Shown here: positions 31,537 to 42,176 of the stretch, piece after piece
Position numbering within the stretch: position 1 is the stretch's first letter
Layout of the letters: every line of letters starts with the position of its first letter
Assembly: GCA_022562295.1 (NCBI GenBank)
Contig: JADFPO010000018.1
Span: 1 to 44,971 of the forward strand
Direction of reading: 5' to 3'
Origin: Gemmatimonadota bacterium
GTDB taxonomy: Bacteria > Gemmatimonadota > Gemmatimonadetes > Gemmatimonadales > GWC2-71-9
DNA length: 44,971 bases
Notes under the pieces: generated by a model
The model's database searches: none
Seen by the model: the letters and a program-made list of their open reading frames with translations, nothing else
Told to the model about the DNA's origin: nothing
Translations under genes and position numbers: made by a program

Positions 31537-32298
31537 ATGTTCCCCTACAAGGACGACAATCCGACGGTACTGACTCCGTTCATGACGGTGGGCATCATCG
31601 CCGCCACGTCGGCCATCTGGATCCTGTACCAAGGGGGTGGTGCAGAGCCGCGCCTCTCTCAATCCGTGTGCGACCTCGGCGCGATTCCTGCCCGTCTGTT
31701 CGGCTACCCTGTCCAGGCCATCCTCACGCCGCGCGGTCCGGTGACTGTGTGCGGTGGAGTCGGGGGCGGGGCGTGGCATACCATCGTGTCTTCCGTGTTT
31801 CTCCACGGCGGTTGGTTTCACCTGATCGGGAACATGTGGTTCCTCTGGATCTTCGGAAACAACATCGAGGACGCGATGGGACCACGCCGCTTCGTGGCGT
31901 TCTACTTGCTTGCCGGGGTGCTCGCGGCGTTGGCCCAGATTTTCTCTGATCGGTCGTCTCCCCTGCCGCTGGTCGGAGCGTCCGGGGCCGTTAGCGCCAT
32001 CATGGGGGCCTACGTCGTGCTGTATCCCAAGGTTCGGGTCCACTCGATTCTGGTTCTTGGGTTCTTCATTACTCGGATCTCGCTACCGGCCTACGTCATG
32101 CTGCTGTATTGGGCGGCGCTCCAGATGGTAGGGTCGCTGGTCGGCGGACAATCCGCCGGTGGGGTGGCGTTTGTCGCGCACCTGGGCGGGTTTGCGGCGG
32201 GTGTCGTGATGATTAAGCTCTTCACGAAACCCGATCTTCTCGCTGCCGCACGGCGCCAGCCGCTCATGTTCACAACGAGCCAGCCCTGGCGGTATTGA
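31537..32298 (+). CDS. Rhomboid family intramembrane serine protease
   Basis: The 253-residue membrane protein has six or more helices. The catalytic dyad is present: Ser149 in LVGASGAVSAIMGAY and His215 in FVAHLGGFAAGV. HGGWFHLIGNMWFLWIFGNNIEDAMG is the conserved loop-1/helix-2 region with the oxyanion His and Asn. Rhomboids cut single-pass membrane proteins within the bilayer. It is the first gene of the run leading into the microcompartment vertex genes: its TGA abuts the GTG of the next gene with no gap. Why it would be tied to a nucleoside/BMC set is unclear; its partner may simply be a conserved neighbour. Confidence 0.9.
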   Translation: MFPYKDDNPTVLTPFMTVGIIAATSAIWILYQGGGAEPRLSQSVCDLGAIPARLFGYPVQAILTPRGPVTVCGGVGGGAWHTIVSSVFLHGGWFHLIGNMWFLWIFGNNIEDAMGPRRFVAFYLLAGVLAALAQIFSDRSSPLPLVGASGAVSAIMGAYVVLYPKVRVHSILVLGFFITRISLPAYVMLLYWAALQMVGSLVGGQSAGGVAFVAHLGGFAAGVVMIKLFTKPDLLAAARRQPLMFTTSQPWRY

Positions 32299-32589
32299 GT
32301 GTACTTGGCACGTATCGTGGGGACCGTGGTCGCGACCGTCAAGCAAGCCACCCTCAAAGGTCAGACACTCCAATGGATTCAGCCGATCGACGCGTCCCAA
32401 AACGATCGGGGGTCGCCAGTAGTGGCTGTGGATCCCATTGGACTCGGCCCGGGCGAATTGTGCTATTACGTCACCGCCAGGGAGGCGTCACTGACCTTGT
32501 GGGACACGTTTGCTGCGGTCGACGCGGCAATCGTGGGCAAGGTGGACAGAATCGATCTGGATGACGGGTGGGCCAGCGGGGAACGGTGA
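32299..32589 (+). CDS. EutN/CcmL-family BMC vertex protein (BMC-P), divergent copy
   Basis: The 96-residue protein starts at GTG 32299, directly after the rhomboid stop. MYLARIVGTVVATVKQATLKGQTLQWIQPID is the usual BMC-P opening, and DAAIVGKVDRIDL the usual closing strand. In the middle the family's glycine-rich hinge is changed to IGLGPGELCYYVTAREASLTL, lacking the ordinary GSSAR/GSAAR turn. It also carries an extra C-terminal DDGWASGER tail. BMC-P proteins form pentamers that cap the vertices of polyhedral microcompartments. This copy and the next gene (34 bases downstream) are probably paralogs with different positions or partners. Confidence 0.82.
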   Translation: MYLARIVGTVVATVKQATLKGQTLQWIQPIDASQNDRGSPVVAVDPIGLGPGELCYYVTAREASLTLWDTFAAVDAAIVGKVDRIDLDDGWASGER

Positions 32590-32622
32590 TACAGACACAA
32601 CGCCCCGGCCCCCGAAAGAACC

Positions 32623-32898
32623 ATGTATCTCGCTAGAGTCGTGGGAGACGTCGTGTCCACCCATAAGAACGATCGTCTGGTTGGGAAGAAACTGTTATTG
32701 GTACGGAAACTGGGCCTCGACGATGGTCCGGACGGATCCATTGAGGTCATCGCGCTCGACGTGGTCGACGCCGGTGTTGGCGACAAGGTGTTGGTGGTGC
32801 AAGAGGGATCATCGGCGCGCAAGATCTTCCAGGACGAGAAGATCCCCGTGCAGGCGGTCATCGTGGGCGTCGTCGACAGTGTGGACCTTCGGCCGTGA
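32623..32898 (+). CDS. EutN/CcmL-family BMC vertex protein (BMC-P)
   Basis: The 91-residue protein is a standard-looking BMC-P. It begins MYLARVVGDVVSTHKNDRLVGKKLLLVRKL, then has the hallmark hinge VVDAGVGDKVLVVQEGSSARKIF and ends PVQAVIVGVVDSVDL. Five copies would make the pentameric cap of an icosahedral shell vertex. The stop TGA overlaps the GTG of deoC (GTGA), coupling shell protein to enzyme production. Together with its divergent neighbour it is the main evidence that a microcompartment is involved. No hexameric BMC-H or trimeric BMC-T gene is found in this window. Confidence 0.92.
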   Translation: MYLARVVGDVVSTHKNDRLVGKKLLLVRKLGLDDGPDGSIEVIALDVVDAGVGDKVLVVQEGSSARKIFQDEKIPVQAVIVGVVDSVDLRP

Positions 32899-33779
32899 AC
32901 GAGCGGGAGATCGACGAACTGGCGCGCGCCGTGGTCGAACGCCTGGGAGTACCACCCGGATTTGGGGGAGGAGGGAGGAGGGAGGAGGGAGGAGGAATAC
33001 GGGGTGGTTGGGGGTGGCCCCCTCCCTCCTCCCCCCTCCCTCCGTCCGATATCACATTAGCCGGTCTGGTGGACCATACTCTGCTGGCAGCCGACGCGAC
33101 GCGAGCGGATATCGAGCGACTGTGTGATGAAGCGCTGGCGCATCGCTTCGCGGCGGTGTGCGTCAACGGCGGGTGGGTGTCGCTTTGTGCGGGGCGGTTG
33201 CTGGGCAGTGGGGTGAAAGTCGCCGCGGTAGTCGGATTTCCGCTCGGTGCGACGACGTCGTCCGCGAAGGCGTTCGAGGCACGGAATCTCGTCGACGAAG
33301 GGGCGGACGAGCTGGACATGGTTGCCCCGATCGGTCGCCTGCTCGACGGAGATTGGGACTACGTCGAAGCTGATATCTCGGGTGTGGTACGATCCTGCGG
33401 TGGGCGAATCGTGAAGGTCATTCTCGAGACGGCCGTCTTGACGCCCATTGAAATAGTGAAGGCATCGGCGTTAGCGAAGGAAGCCGGGGCGTCGTTCGTC
33501 AAGACGTCGACCGGGTTCCACGCGGCCGGCGGTGCGACCGTGGAAGCCGTGGCGCTGATGCGAGAGGCCGTGGGGAGGGGGGGAACCATCGGGGTCAAAG
33601 CGTCCGGCGGTATTCATAGCTGTGCCAGCGCGCTGCAGATGCTGGGCGCCGGCGCGTCGCGGCTTGGAACATCGTCCGGCGTATCGCTGGTCGAATGCAT
33701 CGGTGTCGATGCGCATCCATTCGACGACCTCGTAGCCCATCCGGCACGGCACGCAGCGGCGTGTAGATTTTGTGACTAG
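32895..33779 (+). CDS. deoC: Deoxyribose-phosphate aldolase with putative encapsulation peptide
   Basis: DeoC cleaves 2-deoxyribose-5-phosphate to acetaldehyde and glyceraldehyde-3-phosphate. The start is GTG 32895, overlapping the vertex-protein stop; 294 residues. The aldolase domain (about 52-294) is complete: Asp141 in DELDMVAPIG, Schiff-base Lys203 in FVKTSTGFHAAGG, and Lys235 in GVKASGGI. Ahead of it, residues 1-18 (NEREIDELARAVVERLG) form a short amphipathic helix like the targeting peptides of BMC cargo enzymes. It is joined by a Gly/Arg/Pro-rich linker (19-51) that ordinary DeoC lacks. The linker is encoded by a 15-bp palindrome with G-rich and C-rich arms. The inference is that it is cargo in a shell, containing the acetaldehyde. 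Confidence 0.93.
   Translation: MNEREIDELARAVVERLGVPPGFGGGGRREEGGGIRGGWGWPPPSSPLPPSDITLAGLVDHTLLAADATRADIERLCDEALAHRFAAVCVNGGWVSLCAGRLLGSGVKVAAVVGFPLGATTSSAKAFEARNLVDEGADELDMVAPIGRLLDGDWDYVEADISGVVRSCGGRIVKVILETAVLTPIEIVKASALAKEAGASFVKTSTGFHAAGGATVEAVALMREAVGRGGTIGVKASGGIHSCASALQMLGAGASRLGTSSGVSLVECIGVDAHPFDDLVAHPARHAAACRFCD
32964..33043. repeat. G/A-rich and C/T-rich inverted repeat inside deoC
   Basis: GGGGGAGGAGGGAGG (32964-32978) is perfectly complementary to CCTCCCTCCTCCCCC (33021-33035). Further GGAGG words follow on the left (to 32997) and CCTCC words on the right (33018-33043). The element is in frame and encodes the Gly/Arg/Glu then Pro/Ser linker of DeoC. The G arm could also form a quadruplex on the plus strand. 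Confidence 0.8.
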
Positions 33780-33817
33780 CCGTTAGCTTCACGGCCAGTG
33801 TTTACTCCCATCGGCTC

Positions 33818-34045
33818 ATGAACGAACAGGTCAAGATCTTCGTCAACGAACGCGGCGTTGAAATCCCGCCGGGCACGCCCGTCTCCGAAGCCGTCCGGGC
33901 GTTCGATGCGGCGCTGGGCGAAGCATTGCGTGCCGGTGCTGCGTACGTGACCGATGGGGTGGGCCGACGCATCGATGTCGCCAGCGTGGTGAACGAGGGA
34001 GCCATCCTTCGGGTCGTCAAGACCGCACGCCGTGTTGAGCGGTAG
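33818..34045 (+). CDS. Small protein with ThiS/MoaD-like (beta-grasp) look
   Basis: The 75-residue protein starts at ATG 33818. The opening VKIFVNERGVEIPPGTPVSEAVRAFD matches the first hairpin and helix of the ubiquitin-like ThiS/MoaD fold. It continues with AYVTDGVGRRIDVASVVNEGAILRVV, suggesting the remaining strands. It lacks the C-terminal Gly-Gly that sulfur carriers need, ending in KTARRVER, so a thiocarboxylate role is unlikely. It sits 38 bases after deoC and 12 bases before adenosine deaminase, inside the operon, so it may bind one of these enzymes or the shell. The family name is not known to me. Confidence 0.6.
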   Translation: MNEQVKIFVNERGVEIPPGTPVSEAVRAFDAALGEALRAGAAYVTDGVGRRIDVASVVNEGAILRVVKTARRVER

Positions 34046-34057
34046 CGCGGCGGCGTT

Positions 34058-35083
34058 TTGACGGTCACGAGAGAACTGATCCGACGATTGCCGAAGGCCG
34101 AGTTGCACGTGCATCTGGACGGCTGTCTCCGGCCTGCGACGATGCTCGAACTTGCCGAGGAGGCTGGCGTTGCGCTTCCAGCGAACGACGCCGAAGCGCT
34201 GGCCGAGGCCATGCTGGTGCGTCACGCCAACAGCGTAGAGGAGTACCTCGAGCGCTATCGGTACACGGTGGCAGTGTTGCAGACTCCGGCGGCACTCGAG
34301 CGTGTCGCGTACGAATTCGTGGTAGATGTCGCGCGGGAGAACGTACGCTACGTAGAGGTGAGGTTCGGCCCCGCCCTGCACGTCCCGGCGATGAGCTTGG
34401 CGCAGGCGATCGAGGCGCCGTTGGCGGGAATCAAGCGCGCCACCGAGGAGACGGGTACTCGCGTGTCGTTGATCGCCTGCGCGCTGCGAACGATGTCCCC
34501 ATCCATCTCGAACGACGTGGCACACGCGGCGGTGGACTATCGAGATGAAGGAGTGGTCGCCTTCGACCTGGCGGGTTCGGAGCGGGGGCATCCAGCTCGC
34601 GATCACGCGGCGTCCTTCCGATATGCCTCACGACACGGTCTTCACTGCACGTGTCACGCCGGGGAGGGAGACGGTCCGGACTCGGTTCGTCAGGCGCTGC
34701 ACGATTGCGGCGCCACGCGGATCGGTCACGGGACGCGCATCCTGGAAGACCCGACCCTCGAGAGGTACGTTTGCGAGCGTCGGATACCCTTGGAAGTGTG
34801 CCTATCCTCCAATGTGCACACCAGGACTGTCGAGGCAGCGGCGGCCCACCCGGTGCGGCGGTATATGGATGCCGGCTGCGTCGTGACTCTGAATACGGAT
34901 GGCCGTTTGATGGATGGCGTATCACTCACAGACGAATTGTGGATGGCCCATACGGAGTTGGGTTTCACCCGCGAGGAGATCGATCGAGTGATCGTGAACA
35001 CGTTCGAAAGCGCGTTCCTGCCGGATGGAGTGAAGACGGATCTAGTCGCGCAGGTAAAGAGAGAGCTGGGAGAGATATCGTGA
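34058..35083 (+). CDS. add: Adenosine deaminase
   Basis: The enzyme hydrolytically deaminates adenosine and deoxyadenosine to inosine and deoxyinosine. The start is TTG 34058 (MTVTRELIRRLPKAELHVHL), 341 residues. Zinc and catalytic residues are present: His17 and His19 (HVHLDG), His200 and Glu203 (CHAGEGDGP), His224 (IGHGTR) and Asp281. Where animal and E. coli enzymes read NTDDP, this one has NTDGRLMDGVSLT, the pattern close to actinobacterial ADAs (NTDNRLMSG). The stop overlaps the GTG start of the transporter gene. It supplies 6-oxopurine nucleosides to the phosphorylase encoded two genes later. A close homologue such as an aminofutalosine deaminase cannot be fully excluded. Confidence 0.9.
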   Translation: MTVTRELIRRLPKAELHVHLDGCLRPATMLELAEEAGVALPANDAEALAEAMLVRHANSVEEYLERYRYTVAVLQTPAALERVAYEFVVDVARENVRYVEVRFGPALHVPAMSLAQAIEAPLAGIKRATEETGTRVSLIACALRTMSPSISNDVAHAAVDYRDEGVVAFDLAGSERGHPARDHAASFRYASRHGLHCTCHAGEGDGPDSVRQALHDCGATRIGHGTRILEDPTLERYVCERRIPLEVCLSSNVHTRTVEAAAAHPVRRYMDAGCVVTLNTDGRLMDGVSLTDELWMAHTELGFTREEIDRVIVNTFESAFLPDGVKTDLVAQVKRELGEIS

Positions 35084-36462
35084 CGGTGCTGTGGTTGACC
35101 CAAGGGGCGGCTGATCAACTTGGTGCCGTGCGCGACGGGCTTGGAACGCCGCTGCTCGCCCGTCTCATGGGAGTGGTCGGCATCGCCACCATGATCGGCA
35201 TCGCTTGGGCTTTGTCGGCCGATCGGCGCAAGGTGAACTGGCGCCTCGTGGGCATCGGTGTAGCGCTTCAAGCCCTATTCGGTACGATCGTTTTGAAGAC
35301 CGCGTTGGGCCAGGCGCTGTTCGACGGCGTCAACACGGTGTTCGGTCAGCTTCTGGCGTTTACGGAACACGGCTCCCGTTTCGTATTCGGCAACCTGGTG
35401 CGAAACAACGTCCCGGTCGGCGGAGTGGTTGGTACGCCGGCCGACATGGCGCCACTTCAATCCACCGAGGTGTGGGCCAATACCGGCGCCTATTTCGCGT
35501 TCAGTGTCCTGCCCACGATCATCTTTTTCTCCTCCTTGATATCCGTGCTGTATTACCTCGGCGTGATGCAGAAGATGGTGGGCGGGATCGCGTGGGTGAT
35601 GCAACGGACGATGCGCACGTCAGGTGCGGAGACGCTCTCAGTGGCGGGAAACATTTTCGTGGGTCCAACCGAGGCCCCGCTGTTGATCAGGCCGTTCATC
35701 GGCAAGATGACCGAGTCCGAACTCAATACGGTGATGGTGGGCGGTTTCGCCACGATCGCCGGCGGCGTGATGGCGGCGTATGTGGGAATGCTCTCGCCCT
35801 ACTTTCCGGAGATCGCCGGTCACCTGTTCACGGCCAGCGTGATGAACGCTCCCGCCGCCTTGGTGATCTCGAAACTGCTCGTCCCCGAGGTGGGCGAACC
35901 GGCTACCACCTCTCGAACAAAACTCAAGGTCGAGCGGACGGAAACCAACGTCATCGAGGCCGCGGCGGCCGGTGCGTCGCAAGGACTGCAGTTGGCTCTC
36001 AACGTCGGAGCCATGTTGATCGCGTTTGTCGCCCTCCTAGCCATGGTCAACTTTGGGGTCGGCGCTGTCGGAGGCATGGTGGGGGCGGAGAGCCTGACGC
36101 TCGAAGCAATGCTCGGGTGGATGTTCGCCCCGCTGGTGTGGCTGATGGGCGTGCCGTGGAGCGATGCCGGTCTCGTGGGAAGCCTCATCGGCGTCAAAGT
36201 GATCGCTACGGAGTTCGTCGCGTATCTGCAATTGGCGGGGGTCCTGGATACGGCCGGGAGCTTGTCACCGCGCGGGTCGGTGATTGCAGTGTACGCGCTG
36301 CTCGGGTTCGCAAATATTCCCACGATCGCGATTCAGATCGGAGGAATCGGCGGGATAGCACCCAAACGCCGCGGAGATCTCTCGCGCCTGGGACTGAAGG
36401 CGATGGTTGGTGGCAATCTGGCGGCGTTCATGTCGGCGAGTTTGGCGGGCATGCTGGCGTAA
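35080..36462 (+). CDS. nupC: Concentrative nucleoside transporter (NupC/CNT family)
   Basis: The start is GTG 35080, overlapping the add stop (GTGA), giving 460 residues with about ten helices. CNT landmarks are visible: NVPVGGVVGTPADM, the substrate loop GPTEAPLLIRPFIGKMTESEL, GGFATIAGGVMAAYVGML, and the late GVKVIATEFVAYLQL followed by GFANIPTIAIQIGG. The usual signature is NEFVA; here the Asn, which contacts the ribose in characterised members, is Thr (TEFVA, 36190-36225). It imports nucleosides with sodium or protons. Extra length between helices 3 and 5 (NNVPVGGVVGTPADMAPLQSTEVWANTGA) is longer than in E. coli NupC. It feeds the add/PNP/deoC pathway. Confidence 0.9.
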   Translation: MTVLWLTQGAADQLGAVRDGLGTPLLARLMGVVGIATMIGIAWALSADRRKVNWRLVGIGVALQALFGTIVLKTALGQALFDGVNTVFGQLLAFTEHGSRFVFGNLVRNNVPVGGVVGTPADMAPLQSTEVWANTGAYFAFSVLPTIIFFSSLISVLYYLGVMQKMVGGIAWVMQRTMRTSGAETLSVAGNIFVGPTEAPLLIRPFIGKMTESELNTVMVGGFATIAGGVMAAYVGMLSPYFPEIAGHLFTASVMNAPAALVISKLLVPEVGEPATTSRTKLKVERTETNVIEAAAAGASQGLQLALNVGAMLIAFVALLAMVNFGVGAVGGMVGAESLTLEAMLGWMFAPLVWLMGVPWSDAGLVGSLIGVKVIATEFVAYLQLAGVLDTAGSLSPRGSVIAVYALLGFANIPTIAIQIGGIGGIAPKRRGDLSRLGLKAMVGGNLAAFMSASLAGMLA

Positions 36463-36487
36463 TGGCAACGGATGCCATGGACAAAGA

Positions 36488-36565
36488 AGGTGTCAGGTGG
36501 CAGGTGTCAGGTCCTTCACTATCAACATCAGCGACTGAAACCTGACACCTGAAACCCGTTTTTTT
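36488..36565. terminator. Palindromic repeat with T tract between nupC and PNP genes
   Basis: AGGTGTCAGGT occurs twice in tandem (36488-36498, 36502-36512). CAGGTGTCAGGT at 36501-36512 is perfectly complementary to ACCTGACACCTG at 36540-36551 (27-base loop), and T7 follows at 36559-36565. The layout can act as an intrinsic terminator or attenuator reducing readthrough into the PNP gene. It is also of the word-palindrome class seen at 1762-1853 and 32964-33043. Confidence 0.55.
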
Positions 36566-36599
36566 CTCTGATTCAGTAGCTATCCCGGGGACGCACGCG

Positions 36600-37400
36600 A
36601 TGAACGCGACGACGGCATTTCTCAGAGGACGAGTCGGATCGCGGGAGCCACGTGTCGGTATCGTGTTGGGGTCGGGACTCGGAGGCCTCGCTGACGCCGT
36701 CGAGGAATCGCTGGTAGTCCGCTATGCCGACATTCCCGGTTTTCCCGACTCGAGTGTCGCCGGACACAGGGGCGAGTTGGTCTTCGGGCGGATCGGTGAG
36801 ACGGAAGTCGTGTTGCAGGCCGGACGCTTCCACCTGTACGAAGGTCACGATCCTCAGACGGTCGTCTTGCCTGTGCGGACGTTCGCCGAACTCGGTGTCG
36901 AAACCCTGATCGTCACGAATGCTGCCGGCGGCATTTGCCCGACGTTCAGTCCTCCGGTTCTCATGCTGATTGCGGACCACATCAACCTGATGTGGCGGAA
37001 TCCATTGCTCGGACGGGTCGGGGCTGGGGAGTCACGTTTTCCGGACATGTCCGAACCATACTGCCCGTCGCTTCGGACGTTGGCGCGGCGGCGGGCTCTC
37101 GAGGTCGGCGTCTCGCTCGAGGAAGGCGTGTATGCAGGTGTGTTGGGCCCGAACTATGAGACGCCAGCCGAGATTCGCATGCTGAGCCGGCTGGGCGCCG
37201 ATGCCGTCGGCATGTCCACCGTGCCGGAGGTCATCGCTGCTCGTGCCAGGGGCATGAGGGTGCTTGGGATCTCTACGATCACGAATCTCGCCAGCGGGAT
37301 TTCGCCGTCGAAGCTGGATCATACCGAGGTTCTCGCTGCCGGTGCCGCGGTGACGAACTCGCTGGAGGCGGTGGTGCGCGGCGTACTCGGGGCGCCGTAG
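36600..37400 (+). CDS. Purine nucleoside phosphorylase (trimeric, 6-oxopurine type)
   Basis: PNP splits inosine, guanosine and their deoxy forms with phosphate, giving the base and (deoxy)ribose-1-phosphate. The 266 residues show VGIVLGSGLGGLADAV, VAGHRGELVFGRI, GRFHLYEGHD, VTNAAGGI, the substrate loop VLGPNYETPAEIRML, VGMSTVPEVIAARA and ISTITNLASGI. The Glu of NYET and Asn of ITN correspond to the two residues that select 6-oxopurines in trimeric PNPs, fitting a place after adenosine deaminase. ATG 36600 is chosen; ribosome site weak. It is separated from nupC by 137 bases with a palindrome. A phosphopentomutase to link it with DeoC is not in the window. Confidence 0.93.
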   Translation: MNATTAFLRGRVGSREPRVGIVLGSGLGGLADAVEESLVVRYADIPGFPDSSVAGHRGELVFGRIGETEVVLQAGRFHLYEGHDPQTVVLPVRTFAELGVETLIVTNAAGGICPTFSPPVLMLIADHINLMWRNPLLGRVGAGESRFPDMSEPYCPSLRTLARRRALEVGVSLEEGVYAGVLGPNYETPAEIRMLSRLGADAVGMSTVPEVIAARARGMRVLGISTITNLASGISPSKLDHTEVLAAGAAVTNSLEAVVRGVLGAP

Positions 37401-37530: not shown

Positions 37531-38073
37531 GTGGACGAGCCGGAACTGATCTCCCGGGTTCGACGGGGGGACGCCGTTGCAGAGCGTGAGCTGTATGAGG
37601 CGCATGTGGACCGCGTGTATCGACTGGCCTACCGAATGGCCGGGGACGACGTGCTGGCTCAGGATATCACCCAGGACACGTTCATTCGGGCCTTCGACCG
37701 GATCCACGACTTTCGAGGCGACTCGGCCTTCGGGACGTGGCTCCACGCGGTGGGGAACTCCGTGGCCCTCAACACGCTGCGCAAGGTGAAGCGGTTTCGC
37801 TCGCGGGAGGCAGATCTGGATGAGGCGCGGGCGGTCGGCGATGCGACGTTGGAAGCCGAACCGGATCTCCGGGCGCGGCTCCGCGCGGCGATAGACGACC
37901 TGCCGCACAAGTATCGGGTGGTGTTCATCATGCACGATGTCGAGGGGTACAAGCATCACGAAATTGCGGAGAGTTTGGGAATGCCAGTGGGGACTTCGAA
38001 GGCGCAGTTGTCGAGAGCCCGGGCTAGGCTCAGGGAATCCTTGGCGGAATTTGCCCAGGAGTGGGTGTCATGA
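37531..38073 (+). CDS. ECF RNA polymerase sigma factor
   Basis: The 180-residue sigma-70 family member has only regions 2 and 4. Region 2 runs from LYEAHVDRVYRLAYRMAGDD through AQDITQDTFIRAFDRIHDFRGDSAFGTWLHAVGNSVALNTLRK. Region 4 has LPHKYRVVFIMHDVEGYKHHEIAESLGMPVGTSKAQLSRARARLRE with the helix-turn-helix. The start is GTG 37531 after GGAGTGAG. The stop overlaps the ATG of the next gene, a membrane protein in the position of an anti-sigma factor. The three HEAT genes beyond are probably its regulon or its signal-sensing partners. Confidence 0.92.
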   Translation: MDEPELISRVRRGDAVAERELYEAHVDRVYRLAYRMAGDDVLAQDITQDTFIRAFDRIHDFRGDSAFGTWLHAVGNSVALNTLRKVKRFRSREADLDEARAVGDATLEAEPDLRARLRAAIDDLPHKYRVVFIMHDVEGYKHHEIAESLGMPVGTSKAQLSRARARLRESLAEFAQEWVS

Positions 38074-38714
38074 CGGACGAAAAGTTCACGGAATTCATCA
38101 AGAAGACGGCTCAGGATTACAATCGGCCGCCTGAGGCGCCCCGGGCCGAGATGTGGGCTCGGATCGAAGCGGTGCGGGCAAAGCGTCGCGGCGAGCGGGA
38201 ACTCGAGCGTCAGGCCAGGCCGTGGCTGCGTTGGGGGCTCGCGGCCGCGGCGGTGTTGGCGGTCGGCATCGGGATCGGTCGGCTCATGGCGCCGCCGAAC
38301 AGCAGTGTGACCTCCACGGCCGTCGCTGCGGCGGCGGATGTAGCTCAGCCCGACGGGCTCGTGTTCCGGGTGGTTGCAACGGAATACCTGGCGCGCACGG
38401 ATGCATTCCTTTCTCTGTTTCGCGTGGAAGCGAGACTCGGAACGGCCGACCTCCAAGTGGCCGATTGGGCTCGTGAGCTGCTGACCACGGCGAGGTTGAT
38501 GATTGACTCTCCAGCGGCGGAAGATGCGATGCTGCGAGAGCTGTTGGAGGACCTCGAGCTGATACTGGTGCAGATCGCTCAGTACACGTCGGGCGAGAGC
38601 AGCGCCGAACTGGATTTTATCGAACAAGGACTCGAAGAGCGTGGCGTGTTGCTTCGCCTCCAGGCCGCCTTGGCCATAGGCGATCACGCAGGCTTTGCGC
38701 AAGGAGCTATCTGA
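38070..38714 (+). CDS. Membrane-anchored anti-sigma-like protein
   Basis: The 214-residue protein starts at ATG 38070, overlapping the sigma factor stop (ATGA). The N-terminal 50 residues are charged and cytoplasmic (MTDEKFTEFIKKTAQDYNRP, then EMWARIEAVRAKRRGEREL). One membrane helix follows near 53-72 (WGLAAAAVLAVGIGIGRLM), then a periplasmic helical domain of about 140 residues with no Cys. It lacks the HxxxCxxC zinc motif of the common ZAS anti-sigma domain. The role is inferred from position and topology: bind the sigma factor until a periplasmic signal arrives. Its stop overlaps the start of the first HEAT gene (TGATG). Confidence 0.7.
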   Translation: MTDEKFTEFIKKTAQDYNRPPEAPRAEMWARIEAVRAKRRGERELERQARPWLRWGLAAAAVLAVGIGIGRLMAPPNSSVTSTAVAAAADVAQPDGLVFRVVATEYLARTDAFLSLFRVEARLGTADLQVADWARELLTTARLMIDSPAAEDAMLRELLEDLELILVQIAQYTSGESSAELDFIEQGLEERGVLLRLQAALAIGDHAGFAQGAI

Positions 38715-40270
38715 TGTCTGTGATATACTTGAGAGCCGCCGCCGTCTTCGTAGCGGCTACGGCACAGCCGCTGGCGGCACAGGTCGTCGGGTACCCCCTG
38801 GAGGCGGCCGCGGCCAGGTTGGAGGTGGCCATGAGCTCGTTGTCAGCTGTGGCCTCGGTGCTGGACGTGAGACAGATGTCACTCCGGGCATTCGCTCCGA
38901 ATATCGCGGCGGCCGAGCTGTCGTGGTCGACGGTCGGCCCCAGGCTTGCTGCCATGCGGTACGCGCAGGGGTTTCCTGCCCTGACGGTGGCCCGCGGCTC
39001 GAACGAATGGTTCCCTCAAGACACGGCGGATGCCGTGTATCGGAGGGCACGCACAGCCTTCAATGGTCGCAAATACCGAGAGGCGATCGAACTGTTCGGA
39101 GCGCTGCGCAACCAGTACCCCCAGTCCCGTTACGTGCCGCAGGCGATGTACTACGAAGCGTTCGCTTTGTCACGACTGGAGACCGAAGCTTCCTACAGAA
39201 CTGCGCTCACGGTGCTGGATCAATACCGCTCGCGGTTTCCGCGAGAGTCGAGTTCGGATGTCGAACAGTTGTACATCCGCATCCAAGGGCAATTGGCGCG
39301 ACGTGGGGATTCCGAAGCGGCGGCCGCGGTCGCCGCCCGGGCAGCGGAGTTGGCCCCGGGACCCGTAATCGTTGGTGCGGCGACGCGCGGGGCGCAGTCG
39401 CGGGCCGAGGACGACGTTCGGATGCAGGCCTTGAACGCCCTGATGCAGATGAACGCCGAGAACGCGATGCCGATTCTACGAGACGTTCTTGCCAACAAGG
39501 ACCCGGATCGGGTGCATCTCCGTCGGCGCGCCGTGTTTCTGGTGGCGCAGAAACGCACTGCGGGCAGGGAGGAAATCCTGTTGGAGGCGGCCCGTAACGA
39601 CCCGGATCTCGAGGTGCGCGAGCAAGCTGTGCAGTGGCTCTCGCAAGTTCGCACGGATCGGGCGGTGGCCGCACTGGATTCTATCCTACAGACAGCCACC
39701 GAGCGTTCTCTCCAGGAGAAGGCGATCTTTGCACTCTCCCAGCACCGTAGCGAGCGAGCCGGCGAGATCCTGCGTGCATATGCATTGCGAAGGGACGCGG
39801 ACGTCGAGCTTCGGTCATATGCGATCCAGTGGCTCGGCCAAAGCCGGGGCAACTCGGAGTTCTTGCGGCATCTCTTTCCACAGTTGGAGAACGGCGATCT
39901 AAAGGAACGAGCGCTGTTCGCCCTGTCGCAGCGCCGCACAGAGGAGAACGCGCAGTTTCTCTTTGGCATTGCCATGGATGAATCGGAAGACATACGCATG
40001 AGAACGCGCGCCCTGTTCTGGATGGGTCAGATGCGCGGTGTGAATCAAGATCTCTACACCCTGTACGACCGCGTCGACAACCGCGACATGAAAGAACAGC
40101 TCATTGCGGTGTACGGTCAGCGGCGGCGCGACAGCCTCGCGGTCGATCAGCTCATCGCCATCGCGCGGAACGAGCAGGATACCGAGCTTCGCGGCAAGGC
40201 CATTTTCTGGCTCGGCCAATCCCGCGATTCGCGGGCGATCGAAGTCCTTCGAGAGATCATAAACCGATGA
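38714..40270 (+). CDS. Exported TPR/HEAT-repeat protein, nine-repeat member
   Basis: The 518-residue protein has a signal peptide (LRAAAVFVAATAQPLAAQ). Residues about 105-200 form TPR-like helices (AVYRRARTAFNGRKYREAIELFGALRNQYP). From about 228 to the end there are some nine HEAT-like units of 31-33 residues. They alternate in the first helix between A(I/L)(F/Q)W(L/M)xQ and AxFALSQ: VREQAVQWLSQ, LQEKAIFALSQ, LRSYAIQWLGQ, LKERALFALSQ, MRTRALFWMGQ, and finally LRGKAIFWLGQS. HEAT solenoids bind proteins; no catalytic motif is seen. The stop overlaps the second HEAT gene by ATGA. It is probably periplasmic. Confidence 0.85.
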   Translation: MSVIYLRAAAVFVAATAQPLAAQVVGYPLEAAAARLEVAMSSLSAVASVLDVRQMSLRAFAPNIAAAELSWSTVGPRLAAMRYAQGFPALTVARGSNEWFPQDTADAVYRRARTAFNGRKYREAIELFGALRNQYPQSRYVPQAMYYEAFALSRLETEASYRTALTVLDQYRSRFPRESSSDVEQLYIRIQGQLARRGDSEAAAAVAARAAELAPGPVIVGAATRGAQSRAEDDVRMQALNALMQMNAENAMPILRDVLANKDPDRVHLRRRAVFLVAQKRTAGREEILLEAARNDPDLEVREQAVQWLSQVRTDRAVAALDSILQTATERSLQEKAIFALSQHRSERAGEILRAYALRRDADVELRSYAIQWLGQSRGNSEFLRHLFPQLENGDLKERALFALSQRRTEENAQFLFGIAMDESEDIRMRTRALFWMGQMRGVNQDLYTLYDRVDNRDMKEQLIAVYGQRRRDSLAVDQLIAIARNEQDTELRGKAIFWLGQSRDSRAIEVLREIINR

Positions 40271-41418
40271 CGGCCATCCTGTTTCGGGCTTTGTGGTTGG
40301 TGACGGGTGCGCTCGCGGTCGGCGGGCCGCTGGCCGCCCAAACGATCGCGCAACGTGTGGGAGAAGTGCGCGATGGCCGCGTGCGCATGAGTTTCGCCGC
40401 GCGGGAAGGCGTGTGCGGTTGGGGCGAAGGCGGGCGCACCGTCAACCATCGGTGGCGGTCGGACGATTGGGAAAACGCCTGCGAGGGAGGGCCCGTGCGT
40501 GTGGTCATGCGTATCCAGAGCGGCGTCCCCACGGACCTCGACACCTACATCGGTGGCCGCTGGCGGACCCGCCCCGACGTGACCGATCTCGGCGACATGC
40601 CGGCCCGCGAGGCTGCCGAGTATTTGCTTGGCCTCGCCGAAGATTTCGACGACGACGTCGGGAAAGACGCCATCTTCCCGGCGGCCATGGCGGACAGCGT
40701 GACGGTGTGGCCCGATCTCGCACGCATTGCGCAAAACGACTCCCGTCCACTCGATATCCGGAAGCAGGCGGTCTTTTGGATCGGGCAGGATACGGATGAC
40801 GGTGCGGCGGATGTGCTGGGGGACATTCTCGACTCGTCATTGGAACACGAGATCCGGGAGCAGGCCATCTTCGCGCTGTCCCAACACGACAGCGATCGCT
40901 CGACCACGGTGTTACGCGATTTCGCCGCGTCGCGGCGCGAATCACGCCGGCTGCGGGAGCGGGCGATTTTCTGGTTGGGACAAGAAGGCGATGAGGACGC
41001 GGCGGAGTTTTTGCGCAACCTGTACAGGGAAACGTCCGAAAAGGATCTCAAGGAACGCATCCTCTTTTCGCTGTCTCAGATGCGCGAGGTGGGCAACGAA
41101 CAATGGTTGCTCGGTATCGCGAGCGACGCCGAGGAGTCGATGCAGCTGAGAGAGAGGGCGATCTTCTGGACCGGCCAGACGCCGAACTCGACGGCGGAAC
41201 TGGTAGATTTGTACGATCGAATGACCAACGCCTCGCTCCGCGAGCGCCTCATCTTTGCCCTCTCGCAGCAGCGGCGCGACCCGGAGGCGATGGAAAAATT
41301 GATGGATATCGCGCGCGGCGATCCGGATCGCGAGCTGCGGGGGAAGGCGATGTTTTGGCTAGGACAGTCTCGCGATCGGCGAGCAGCGGATTTCCTGGCG
41401 GATCTGATCAACCGATGA
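40267..41418 (+). CDS. Exported HEAT-repeat protein, seven-repeat member
   Basis: The 383-residue protein has signal peptide FRALWLVTGALAVGGPLAAQ. Residues 28 to about 140 are a distinct domain: IAQRVGEVRDGRVRMSFAAREGVCGWGEG, then ENACEGGPVRVVMRI and DTYIGGRWR, with two Cys (in GVCG and ACEGGP) likely to pair. The C-terminal 220 residues hold seven HEAT units that strictly alternate FWxGQ and F(A/S)LSQ (AVFWIGQ, AIFALSQ, AIFWLGQ, ILFSLSQ, AIFWTGQ, LIFALSQ, AMFWLGQ). The N-terminal domain is shared with the next gene. Stop and start overlap by four bases. Function unknown; protein binding in the periplasm is the natural inference. Confidence 0.85.
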   Translation: MTAILFRALWLVTGALAVGGPLAAQTIAQRVGEVRDGRVRMSFAAREGVCGWGEGGRTVNHRWRSDDWENACEGGPVRVVMRIQSGVPTDLDTYIGGRWRTRPDVTDLGDMPAREAAEYLLGLAEDFDDDVGKDAIFPAAMADSVTVWPDLARIAQNDSRPLDIRKQAVFWIGQDTDDGAADVLGDILDSSLEHEIREQAIFALSQHDSDRSTTVLRDFAASRRESRRLRERAIFWLGQEGDEDAAEFLRNLYRETSEKDLKERILFSLSQMREVGNEQWLLGIASDAEESMQLRERAIFWTGQTPNSTAELVDLYDRMTNASLRERLIFALSQQRRDPEAMEKLMDIARGDPDRELRGKAMFWLGQSRDRRAADFLADLINR

Positions 41419-42176
41419 CGACGACCCGCTGGAGCTGGAAGACCGCGTTGGTGGTGGTCGGGTTCGCAGCCTCAACGGGCGCGGCCCAGGCACAGACGGT
41501 CGCCGAAAGAGTGGGCGCGGCGCCAGATGGAAAAATTCGCATGACGTACGCGGCGCGACCGGGCGTTTGCGGGAACGGCCCAAATATCAACACCGGGCGT
41601 GGTGACAATGCGGATTGGGAGTGGGAATGCGAGCCCGGCCCAGTTCGAGTCGTACTTACCAAGTCAGGTGGCGAAGTCACGCGCGTGCACACCTATGTGG
41701 GTGGTGGGTGGCGTGCCGCCTCGCGCGTTGCCGACCTGGGGACGGTGTCGGCGTCGGAGGCGGCCGAGTACTTGACCGGTTTGGTACGAAGCGGAGGAGA
41801 TCGCGCGTCGCGTGATGCCGTTATGCCAGCTTCCATCGCCGACAGTGCCGTCGTGTGGCCCGCGCTAATCGATGTGGCGCGCGACGCCAACCGGCCTCGC
41901 CGGACTCGGCGCGTTGCCCTGCAGTGGGTGGGGATGGCGGCGGGAGACGTTGTCACCGACGGCCAGATGGTCGTAGACGACGCAGATCGCGAAACGCGCG
42001 AACAGGCCGTATTCGCCGTATCACAGTTGCCGAAGGATGAAGGTGTCCCTTTGCTGATCGAGGTCGCCCGTTCCCATCGCGATCCGCAAGTCCGTCGTAG
42101 GGCATTGTTCTGGTTGGGCCAATCGGGAGATGCTCGCGCCATCGACCTGTTCGAAGAGTTGCTGCGCGGTCGCTGA
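41415..42176 (+). CDS. Exported HEAT-repeat protein, three-repeat member
   Basis: The 253-residue paralog of the preceding gene has signal peptide ALVVVGFAASTGAAQAQ and the same N-terminal domain: VAERVGAAPDGKIRMTYAARPGVCG, then ECEPGPVRVVL and HTYVGGGWR, with the two Cys conserved. Only about three HEAT units remain: VALQWVGM, AVFAVSQL and ALFWLGQSGDARAIDLFEELL. The first is poorly conserved. It is the last gene of the sigma-factor operon. The declining repeat number along the operon (nine, seven, three) suggests duplication followed by repeat gain or loss. Confidence 0.82.
   Translation: MTTTRWSWKTALVVVGFAASTGAAQAQTVAERVGAAPDGKIRMTYAARPGVCGNGPNINTGRGDNADWEWECEPGPVRVVLTKSGGEVTRVHTYVGGGWRAASRVADLGTVSASEAAEYLTGLVRSGGDRASRDAVMPASIADSAVVWPALIDVARDANRPRRTRRVALQWVGMAAGDVVTDGQMVVDDADRETREQAVFAVSQLPKDEGVPLLIEVARSHRDPQVRRRALFWLGQSGDARAIDLFEELLRGR

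What the first reader, a model, noticed from the sequence alone, without database searches (positions are those of the whole stretch)
31537..37400. Vertex-only microcompartment gene set embedded in a purine deoxynucleoside catabolic operon
Two BMC-P vertex genes are coupled by overlap to deoC and followed by add, a CNT transporter and a 6-oxopurine PNP. The set spells out uptake, deamination, phosphorolysis and aldol cleavage of purine deoxynucleosides. Known DeoC-containing BMC loci (sugar-phosphate-utilising types) carry hexamer and trimer genes; this one has none, nor an aldehyde dehydrogenase or phosphotransacylase. Either it is a satellite of a shell locus elsewhere, or vertex proteins here build something else. 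Basis: gene calls seen directly; shell function known for the family; the system is inferred.
Basis: partly seen in the sequence, partly recalled or inferred. Interest (0 to 1): 0.85.

Follow-up and report, generated by a model that had tools for sequence, protein, structure and literature searches.

The report
Satellite of a nucleoside-eating microcompartment
The two "corner" genes are one scattered piece of a protein-shelled bacterial organelle that probably breaks down the sugar of DNA building blocks; its wall genes only seem absent because the genome assembly breaks where they should lie.

Summary
The genes are real: two BMC-P vertex genes (P1, P2), deoC overlapping P2 by 4 nt, a small ORF, add, CNT and PNP. 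"Vertex-only" is not. The own assembly has no BMC-H hit, but it has a third BMC-P behind deoB-cdd and a PduL gene whose contig ends inside the gene. In 11 of 12 dispersed-type relatives with the shell locus on hand, one of the same genus, BMC-H, BMC-H and AldDh lie directly upstream of pduL (G097 differs). G038, also without BMC-H, has its contig cut inside pduL too. So the window holds a satellite of a metabolosome split over three loci: P1-P2-deoC (here with purine genes), deoB-cdd-P3, H1-H2-AldDh-pduL. DeoC has an N-terminal helix and disordered linker; a profile of DeoC N-termini ranks PduL N-termini above all other proteins tested, suggesting a shared encapsulation signal. P1, P2, P3 are orthologous to the triplet of compact SPU-type loci. 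Elsewhere (KSB1 and others) P2-deoC often sits with a phosphomutase and PyNP. Closest known: FRAG BMCs (function unassigned), HO satellites (two BMC-P plus aldolase), SPU. New variant of a known kind; likely a deoxynucleoside metabolosome. No experiment shows it.

The parts
31537..32298 (+). rhomboid-family protease gene; upstream neighbour, possibly first gene of the transcript but not a pathway part
   Evidence: PF01694 114.5 bits; upstream of P1-P2-deoC in 10 of 12 complete locus-1 loci
32299..32589 (+). P1: BMC-P vertex protein, GTG start directly after the rhomboid stop
   Evidence: PF03319 75.5 bits; matches solved BMC-P chains 4i7a and 5v74; P1 clade 99/95
32623..32898 (+). P2: BMC-P vertex protein
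   Evidence: PF03319 89.1 bits; 4i7a 57.9 bits; P2 clade 96/94
32895..33779 (+). deoC, deoxyribose-phosphate aldolase with N-terminal encapsulation-type helix; GTG start overlaps the P2 stop by 4 nt
   Evidence: TIGR00126 249 bits; AlphaFold model m654fe3c3688b matches solved deoxyribose-phosphate aldolases
32895..33050 (+). coding region of the DeoC helix (residues 3-17) and the disordered linker that contains the (GGGAGGA)n array at 32966-32995
   Evidence: helix 3-17, pLDDT under 50 at residues 24-45; tandem repeat
33818..34045 (+). 75-aa beta-grasp-like protein of unknown role, directly before add
   Evidence: no Pfam or NCBIfam match; conserved in G173 and G104; predicted fold: highest TM-score among the 50 rows shown is a TGS domain, 3hvz (0.70), top row by E-value is SUMO1
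34058..35083 (+). add, (deoxy)adenosine deaminase
   Evidence: PF00962 333 bits, TIGR01430 316 bits
35080..36462 (+). CNT-family nucleoside transporter, overlaps add by 4 nt
   Evidence: PF07662 248 bits, PF01773, PF07670; TIGR00804 417 bits, under its cut-off of 442
36600..37400 (+). purine-nucleoside phosphorylase (inosine/guanosine type), 137 nt after CNT
   Evidence: PF01048 174 bits; PRK08202 347 bits

Best explanation
The locus is a satellite of a bacterial metabolosome whose genes are split over three chromosomal places in this lineage (Gemmatimonadota, inferred from the named relatives). Locus 1 (this window) makes two of the three vertex pentamers (P1, P2) and the signature enzyme DeoC, and here also the nucleoside transporter, purine deaminase and phosphorylase. 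Locus 2 (contig C25) makes phosphopentomutase DeoB, cytidine deaminase and the third vertex protein P3. Locus 3 makes two BMC-H wall proteins, the aldehyde dehydrogenase AldDh and the phosphotransacylase PduL; in this assembly only the pduL end survives, at the end of contig C183. Proposed working: nucleosides are imported (CNT), deaminated (Add, Cdd) and phosphorolysed (PNP) in the cytosol; DeoB turns deoxyribose-1-P into deoxyribose-5-P; this enters the shell, where DeoC, carried in by its N-terminal helix, splits it into glyceraldehyde-3-P and acetaldehyde; AldDh and PduL convert the trapped acetaldehyde to acetyl-CoA and acetyl-phosphate. Shown here: gene identities, gene order in relatives, the contig break, the predicted helix-linker architecture of DeoC and its similarity to the PduL N-terminus. 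Inferred: that a shell forms, that DeoC is inside it, cytosolic placement of the other enzymes, and the direction of flux.
For: Own genome: three PF03319 genes, the third behind deoB-cdd on C25; PduL at C183:10328-10855 with the 10,915-bp contig ending inside pduL, about 85 residues missing, and the C-terminal half of YbgC plus HEAT/cyclophilin downstream as in relatives. Relatives: H1-H2-AldDh-PduL in that order in 11 of the 12 dispersed-type genomes whose BMC-H locus was fetched, including same-genus G173. Co-occurrence in 150 phylum genomes: PF03319 in 17, PF00936 in 14, all 14 among the 17 (Fisher p 3.8e-17, not corrected for relatedness). G038, also without BMC-H, has its PTAC domain starting at base 82 of its contig, in a frame open from base 1. 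The AldDh query finds G173 (714 bits) but nothing in G000. P1-P2-DeoC in 12 of 12 complete loci; Cdd directly before P3 in 13 of 13 dispersed loci, DeoB before Cdd in 11 of 13. P2 is followed within about 1 kb by deoC in 29 of 35 genome-contig loci of several phyla (some are the same genomes as above). Shared N-terminal signal: a profile of 15 DeoC N-termini ranks 5 of 5 correctly started PduL N-termini (E 1.6e-5 to 0.016) above every other non-DeoC protein among 364 entries (next 0.17). Predicted DeoC: helix 3-17, disordered linker, barrel domain. P1, P2, P3 are each one clade shared with compact SPU-type loci (13 of 20 genomes used).
Against: DeoC of the same-genus genome G173 lacks the N-terminal extension, so encapsulation of DeoC is not universal in this genus; G173 is also 7% contaminated. 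G097, dispersed in loci 1 and 2, has BMC-H with a different AldDh and no PduL match in the stretch. Single helices are mostly not significantly amphipathic against shuffles: 5 of 15 N-terminal helices of DeoC and PduL below 0.05, and 1 of 4 AldDh C-termini. BMC-H and AldDh of G000 itself were never seen; a real loss with the contig end falling there by chance is not strictly excluded. The gene on the other side of the gap (metallophosphoesterase) was not found in G000 (no positive control). The purine genes accompany the locus in only 3 of 12 stretches. Nothing here shows that a shell forms.
Confidence: 0.87

Rival explanations
1. Vertex-only system: the genome really lacks hexamers and the BMC-P proteins form a soluble pentameric scaffold or metabolite-binding ring for DeoC.
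For: 0 PF00936 matches in a 94.6% complete assembly; G038 (95%) has three BMC-P and no BMC-H; DeoC and P2 are tightly coupled.
Against: All 14 BMC-H genomes of the phylum sample are BMC-P genomes; the same-genus G173 has two BMC-H; the only two dispersed-type genomes without BMC-H both have contigs cut inside pduL, beside where AldDh and BMC-H sit in relatives; pduL, the enzyme of the shell locus, is kept.
Confidence: 0.04
2. Degenerating satellite: the shell locus has been lost or is decaying in this lineage and P1-P2-deoC is a remnant whose enzymes work as an ordinary cytosolic deoxynucleoside pathway.
For: G172 of the same genus has neither PF03319 nor PduL; only the C-terminal half of YbgC is matched behind pduL in C183; DeoC of G173 lacks its extension; the DeoC linker of G000 is a low-complexity repeat.
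Against: All three BMC-P frames are open and fall in their orthologous clades; DeoC keeps its N-terminal helix and D141, K203 and K235, invariant in 16 aligned sequences; PduL keeps its PTAC domain at 203-204 bits.
Confidence: 0.07
3. Bystander operon: the shell pair plus deoC is a BMC satellite, but the purine genes next to it are merely adjacent and the real substrate is free deoxyribose or another sugar phosphate.
For: Add-CNT-PNP within the fetched stretch in only 3 of 12 locus-1 loci; PNP is separated by 137 nt with a hairpin.
Against: The order deoC-ORF75-add-CNT-PNP is kept in G173, and CNT-PNP follow deoC in L127; cdd and deoB accompany P3, and outside Gemmatimonadota a phosphomutase and PyNP often accompany P2-deoC.
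Confidence: 0.2

Closest known systems
FRAG BMC types (Sutter et al. 2021, PMC8217296; passages read)
   Same: Shell genes scattered over several places; BMC-P triplet; reported from Gemmatimonadetes, Ignavibacteriae and relatives, Planctomycetes and candidate phyla.
   Different: The paper says most FRAG genes are remote from known enzymes and lists FRAG1-7 among loci without an obvious aldehyde-generating enzyme; here BMC-P genes are in tight order with deoC, cdd, deoB and, in this genus, add-CNT-PNP. Whether these loci are FRAG by the paper's own models could not be tested.
HO-type BMC satellite (Haliangium ochraceum; same paper, passages)
   Same: [quoted passage not shown] P3 of this genome is closest among solved chains to 5v74/6mzx (that this is the H. 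ochraceum shell protein is recalled).
   Different: H. ochraceum has one BMC-H and three BMC-T (PMC4207490, passages); of the 11 genomes here with locus 3, 10 have two BMC-H and no BMC-T, and G104 has one BMC-T besides.
SPU metabolosome (Axen et al. 2014, PMC4207490; Sutter 2021; passages)
   Same: DeoC, AldDh, PduL, proposed catabolism of DNA sugar; already reported in Gemmatimonadetes single-cell genomes. The compact locus of G020 has RpiB, DeoC, AldDh, BMC-T and TIM (AldDh and DeoC by blast to Pfam-tested relatives); the same genes match by tblastn in G120 and G125, in G050 without TIM in the stretch, and in G131 from inside BMC-H onward, where the contig starts.
   Different: Dispersed loci lack RpiB (own RpiB is elsewhere, C71), lack BMC-T in most genomes, are split in three, and carry nucleoside enzymes.
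Classical deo/nucleoside salvage operons (recalled)
   Same: DeoC, DeoB, PNP or PyNP, Cdd, Add and CNT complement.
   Different: No shell proteins and no N-terminal extension on DeoC in the classical systems (recalled).

Membership tests
BMC-P vertex family (PF03319) | PF03319 domain over curated cut-off in an open frame | tested here: met
   P1 75.5, P2 89.1, third copy 103.5 bits against cut-off 25
BMC-P vertex family (PF03319) | Forms pentamers that cap shell vertices | not testable with these tools
   only sequence matches to solved BMC-P chains
[quoted passage not shown]
   no PF00936 in the own assembly; by that paper's definition this is a satellite locus
FRAG BMC | Shell genes in several separate genomic places | tested here: met
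   separate places in relatives with all three loci on hand, e.g. G015, G104, G173
FRAG BMC | BMC-P triplet | tested here: met
   three genes in 16 of 17 phylum-sample genomes with any, three separate clades; whether they fall in the paper's gray and orange clades was not tested
FRAG BMC | Shell-protein types as scored by the catalog's own models | not testable with these tools
   models and supplements not held
HO satellite | Two BMC-P genes with a pfam01791 aldolase | tested here: met
   P1, P2, DeoC with PF01791 57.4 bits
HO BMC | H. [quoted passage not shown]
   10 of the 11 relatives with locus 3 have two BMC-H and no BMC-T; G104 has one BMC-T
SPU metabolosome | DeoC-type aldolase in the locus | tested here: met
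SPU metabolosome | RpiB (PF02502) in the locus | tested here: not met
   the one own RpiB is on C71, not on C141, C25 or C183
Metabolosome core | AldDh and PTAC encoded with the shell | tested here: inconclusive
   PduL present at a contig end; AldDh not found in G000 although the same query finds it in G173; both beside BMC-H in 11 of 12 dispersed relatives
Encapsulated cargo | Terminal helix joined by a flexible linker, shared with other cargo | tested here: met
   absent in G173 DeoC; single-helix amphipathicity mostly not significant; targeting itself untested

The most novel reading that the evidence does not exclude
The scattered, functionally unassigned FRAG-like BMCs of Gemmatimonadota, KSB1, Calditrichota, Neomarinimicrobiota and Zixibacteria are one kind of organelle, a deoxynucleoside metabolosome. 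Its vertex genes have been placed in the substrate operons (P1-P2 with DeoC and purine genes, P3 with DeoB-Cdd) while walls, AldDh and PduL are elsewhere, so that closing the shell depends on nucleoside supply.
Probability: 0.2. Interest if true: 0.75.

Novelty: new variant of a known kind. Interest (0 to 1): 0.52.

Why it matters
The 2021 catalog leaves FRAG BMCs without a substrate and names them among loci lacking an obvious aldehyde-generating enzyme. Here, loci of that description are tied by conserved gene order to deoC, cdd and deoB, and in other phyla to a phosphomutase and pyrimidine-nucleoside phosphorylase, with a probable shared cargo signal on DeoC and PduL. That makes a concrete substrate (deoxynucleosides, perhaps from dead biomass) testable. 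It also shows that a 'vertex-only' genome can be an assembly artefact: two separate assemblies break inside the same gene, pduL.

Tried and rejected
Vertex-only reading: rejected because of the pduL contig end and the same-genus BMC-H. Hydrophobic-moment test of single N-terminal helices: weak; the profile test was done afterwards. Search for the metallophosphoesterase flank in G000, to bracket the gap from the other side: no match, no positive control. A first AldDh search of G000 had no positive control; one search supplied one (G173 714 bits; G038 only a weak partial match, 28% identity). C-terminal extension of BMC-H2 looked Rho_N/SAP-like to me, but 8 of 8 segments had no Pfam match up to E 5. 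Promoter and terminator scan: uninformative (0 promoters against 1.3 expected; 8 terminator-like sites on both strands against 4.0). Two small ORFs taken for cytidine deaminase in L132 and L148 proved to be YgbA_NO and 23S_rRNA_IVP. Literature: no paper holds BMC-P, deoxyribose, microcompartment and nucleoside together; 'bacterial microcompartment' with 'nucleoside phosphorylase' gave 2 papers seen as listings only; 'nucleoside' has 0 occurrences in the main texts of both catalogs; further searches were read as listings. Subscription papers, preprints and supplements were not searchable. In one search three PduL proteins stood twice among the 364 entries, the five top rows are DeoC proteins that the profile was built from, the G029 PduL entry had a wrongly early start so that its true N-terminus was not tested, G097 DeoC scored weakly (0.63), and the two compact-type DeoC entries (L063, L064) do not appear in the listing. 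The layout of each genome (dispersed or compact) is my reading of the map.
Full report
What is in the window. The interval holds rhomboid (31537-32298), P1 and P2 (EutN/CcmL family, 32299-32589 and 32623-32898), deoC (32895-33779), a 75-aa ORF (33818-34045), add (34058-35083), a CNT transporter (35080-36462) and PNP (36600-37400). P1 starts at the base after the rhomboid stop, P2 is 33 nt further on, deoC overlaps P2 by 4 nt and CNT overlaps add by 4 nt; PNP is 137 nt away behind a hairpin-forming repeat. DnaK and DegP lie divergently upstream.

Are the vertex genes alone? The own assembly (3.79 Mb, 210 contigs, 94.6% complete) has no PF00936 match. It has three PF03319 genes: the pair in the window and one on contig C25, where it directly follows cytidine deaminase and phosphopentomutase. 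In a phylum sample of 150 genomes, 17 have PF03319 (16 of them three genes each) and 14 have PF00936; all 14 are among the 17. A family search of 102 genomes added three more genomes with PF03319, all three with BMC-H, among them G173 of the same genus, which is 94% complete and 7% contaminated. So 17 of 20 BMC-P genomes have BMC-H; the exceptions are G000, G038 and G009.

Why the exceptions. In 11 of the 12 dispersed-type relatives whose BMC-H locus I fetched, the hexamers sit in the order BMC-H, BMC-H, AldDh, PduL with a divergent metallophosphoesterase before them, followed by YbgC except in two stretches that end at a contig end (Pfam identities from G104). The twelfth, G097, has BMC-H and a different AldDh, without a PduL match in the stretch. 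G000 has PduL on C183, and that 10,915-bp contig ends inside pduL, leaving out about 85 N-terminal residues; downstream come the C-terminal half of YbgC and the HEAT/cyclophilin gene as in relatives. G038 has its PTAC domain at bases 82-612 of its contig, in a frame open from base 1, so it is cut on the same side. An AldDh query finds G173 at 714 bits and nothing in G000. Both contig ends are G+C-rich linker sequence. I conclude that BMC-H and AldDh of G000 lie in an assembly gap. G009 (84% complete, 600 contigs) has its BMC-P genes on a 5.2-kb contig and stays unresolved.

Layout. By my reading of the map, 14 of the 20 genomes are of the dispersed layout and six of a compact one. Dispersed: P1-P2-deoC in 12 of 12 complete loci (in a 13th, G171, the contig ends after P2), next to DnaK in 11 of 12 and with rhomboid upstream in 10 of 12; Cdd directly before P3 in 13 of 13, DeoB before Cdd in 11 of 13. 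The purine genes add-CNT-PNP with the 75-aa ORF follow deoC in G000 and G173 and lie a few kb off, inverted, in G104 (3 of 12 stretches); CNT-PNP also follow deoC in L127. Compact (G020): TetR, RpiB, DeoC, an unknown protein, BMC-H, P3, AldDh, BMC-T, P1, P2, TpiA, i.e. the published SPU set. A tree of 39 BMC-P proteins from 13 of the 20 genomes puts P1, P2 and P3 each in one clade shared by both layouts (99/95, 96/94, 97/89; the P1 and P2 rows of G097 are long).

Beyond the phylum. A scan of one genome per species with an alignment of P2 gave 35 loci titled Gemmatimonadota, KSB1, Calditrichaeota, Neomarinimicrobiota, Zixibacteria, Planctomycetota and others; several are the same contigs as above. 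P2 is followed within about 1 kb by deoC in 29 of 35 (of the six misses one ends right after P2). Among the 19 loci that neither bear a Gemmatimonadota title nor resemble that layout (L123 and L125 resemble it), a PGM/PMM-type phosphomutase precedes P2 in 11 and pyrimidine-nucleoside phosphorylase follows deoC in 6 (Pfam on L136 and L147). So a phosphomutase accompanies these shell genes in two unrelated forms (DeoB here, PGM/PMM there), which fits the step deoxyribose-1-P to deoxyribose-5-P. In KSB1 locus L136 the P2-deoC-PyNP group and two BMC-H genes lie within 7 kb.

Cargo signal. DeoC of G000 has a predicted N-terminal helix (residues 3-17), a disordered linker and a barrel domain that matches solved deoxyribose-phosphate aldolases; D141, K203 and K235 are invariant in the 16 aligned sequences (their catalytic role is recalled). 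N-terminal extensions of this kind are in 10 of 11 dispersed DeoC proteins read, with starts chosen by eye, and a divergent one in G097; G173 lacks it. A profile built from 15 DeoC N-termini and run on the N- and C-terminal 45 residues of 364 protein entries puts the five correctly started PduL N-termini directly after the DeoC proteins it was built from (E 1.6e-5 to 0.016; next unrelated 0.17). Two unrelated enzymes sharing a terminal helix is what a common encapsulation peptide predicts (definition in PMC8217296, passages). Single-helix amphipathicity against shuffles was mostly not significant.

How it probably works, and what is not shown. Import and base removal in the cytosol, mutase to deoxyribose-5-P, then DeoC, AldDh and PduL inside the shell, acetaldehyde being the trapped intermediate. 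Gene identities, order, the contig break and the shared helix are shown; shell formation, placement of enzymes and flux are inferred from established BMC biology.

Relation to print. The catalog of Sutter et al. (PMC8217296; passages read, not the supplements) describes FRAG BMCs (BMC-P triplet, scattered, in Gemmatimonadetes among others, function unknown), HO type I satellites with two BMC-P and an aldolase, and SPU loci for DNA sugar. Axen et al. (PMC4207490; passages) named SPU partly from Gemmatimonadetes single cells. 'Nucleoside' does not occur in either main text and my searches found no paper tying BMCs to nucleoside phosphorylases. The finding is therefore a new variant of a known kind, of interest because it offers a substrate for a BMC class that lacked one.

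Noticed in passing
window 32964-33047: The DeoC linker is encoded by a perfect (GGGAGGA)n array followed by a C-rich inverted copy. Contig C183 ends in similarly G-rich pduL linker, a plausible cause of the break.
   Followed up: partly
window 33818-34045: 75-aa ORF before add, predicted beta-grasp-like, conserved in G173 and G104 but without a family in Pfam or NCBIfam.
   Followed up: partly
L056:8159-8362, L060:7467-7655, L114:1396-1599, L136:14376-14582: The second BMC-H has a C-terminal extension of about 65 residues of unknown fold; 8 of 8 segments tried had no Pfam match.
   Followed up: partly
L136, L140, L142, L144, L147, L148, L149: DeoC linkers of several loci outside Gemmatimonadota carry Cys-rich motifs such as CNWCWVCPDC or CRLCRD, possibly metal- or cluster-binding.
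   Followed up: no
L074:9862-10068: Only the C-terminal half of the YbgC thioesterase is matched after pduL in the own genome.
   Followed up: no
L094:7770-8468: DeoC of same-genus G173 lacks the N-terminal extension and is short at the C-terminus.
   Followed up: partly
L147, L148: Neomarinimicrobiota loci have a citrate-lyase alpha-subunit gene (CitF; in L147 also an HpcH/HpaI-type protein) downstream of P2-deoC.
   Followed up: no
window 38714-42176: Three neighbouring frames of one related cluster downstream of the ECF sigma factor gene (37531-38073), shared with G104; they look like HEAT-repeat proteins by eye, not tested here.
   Followed up: no
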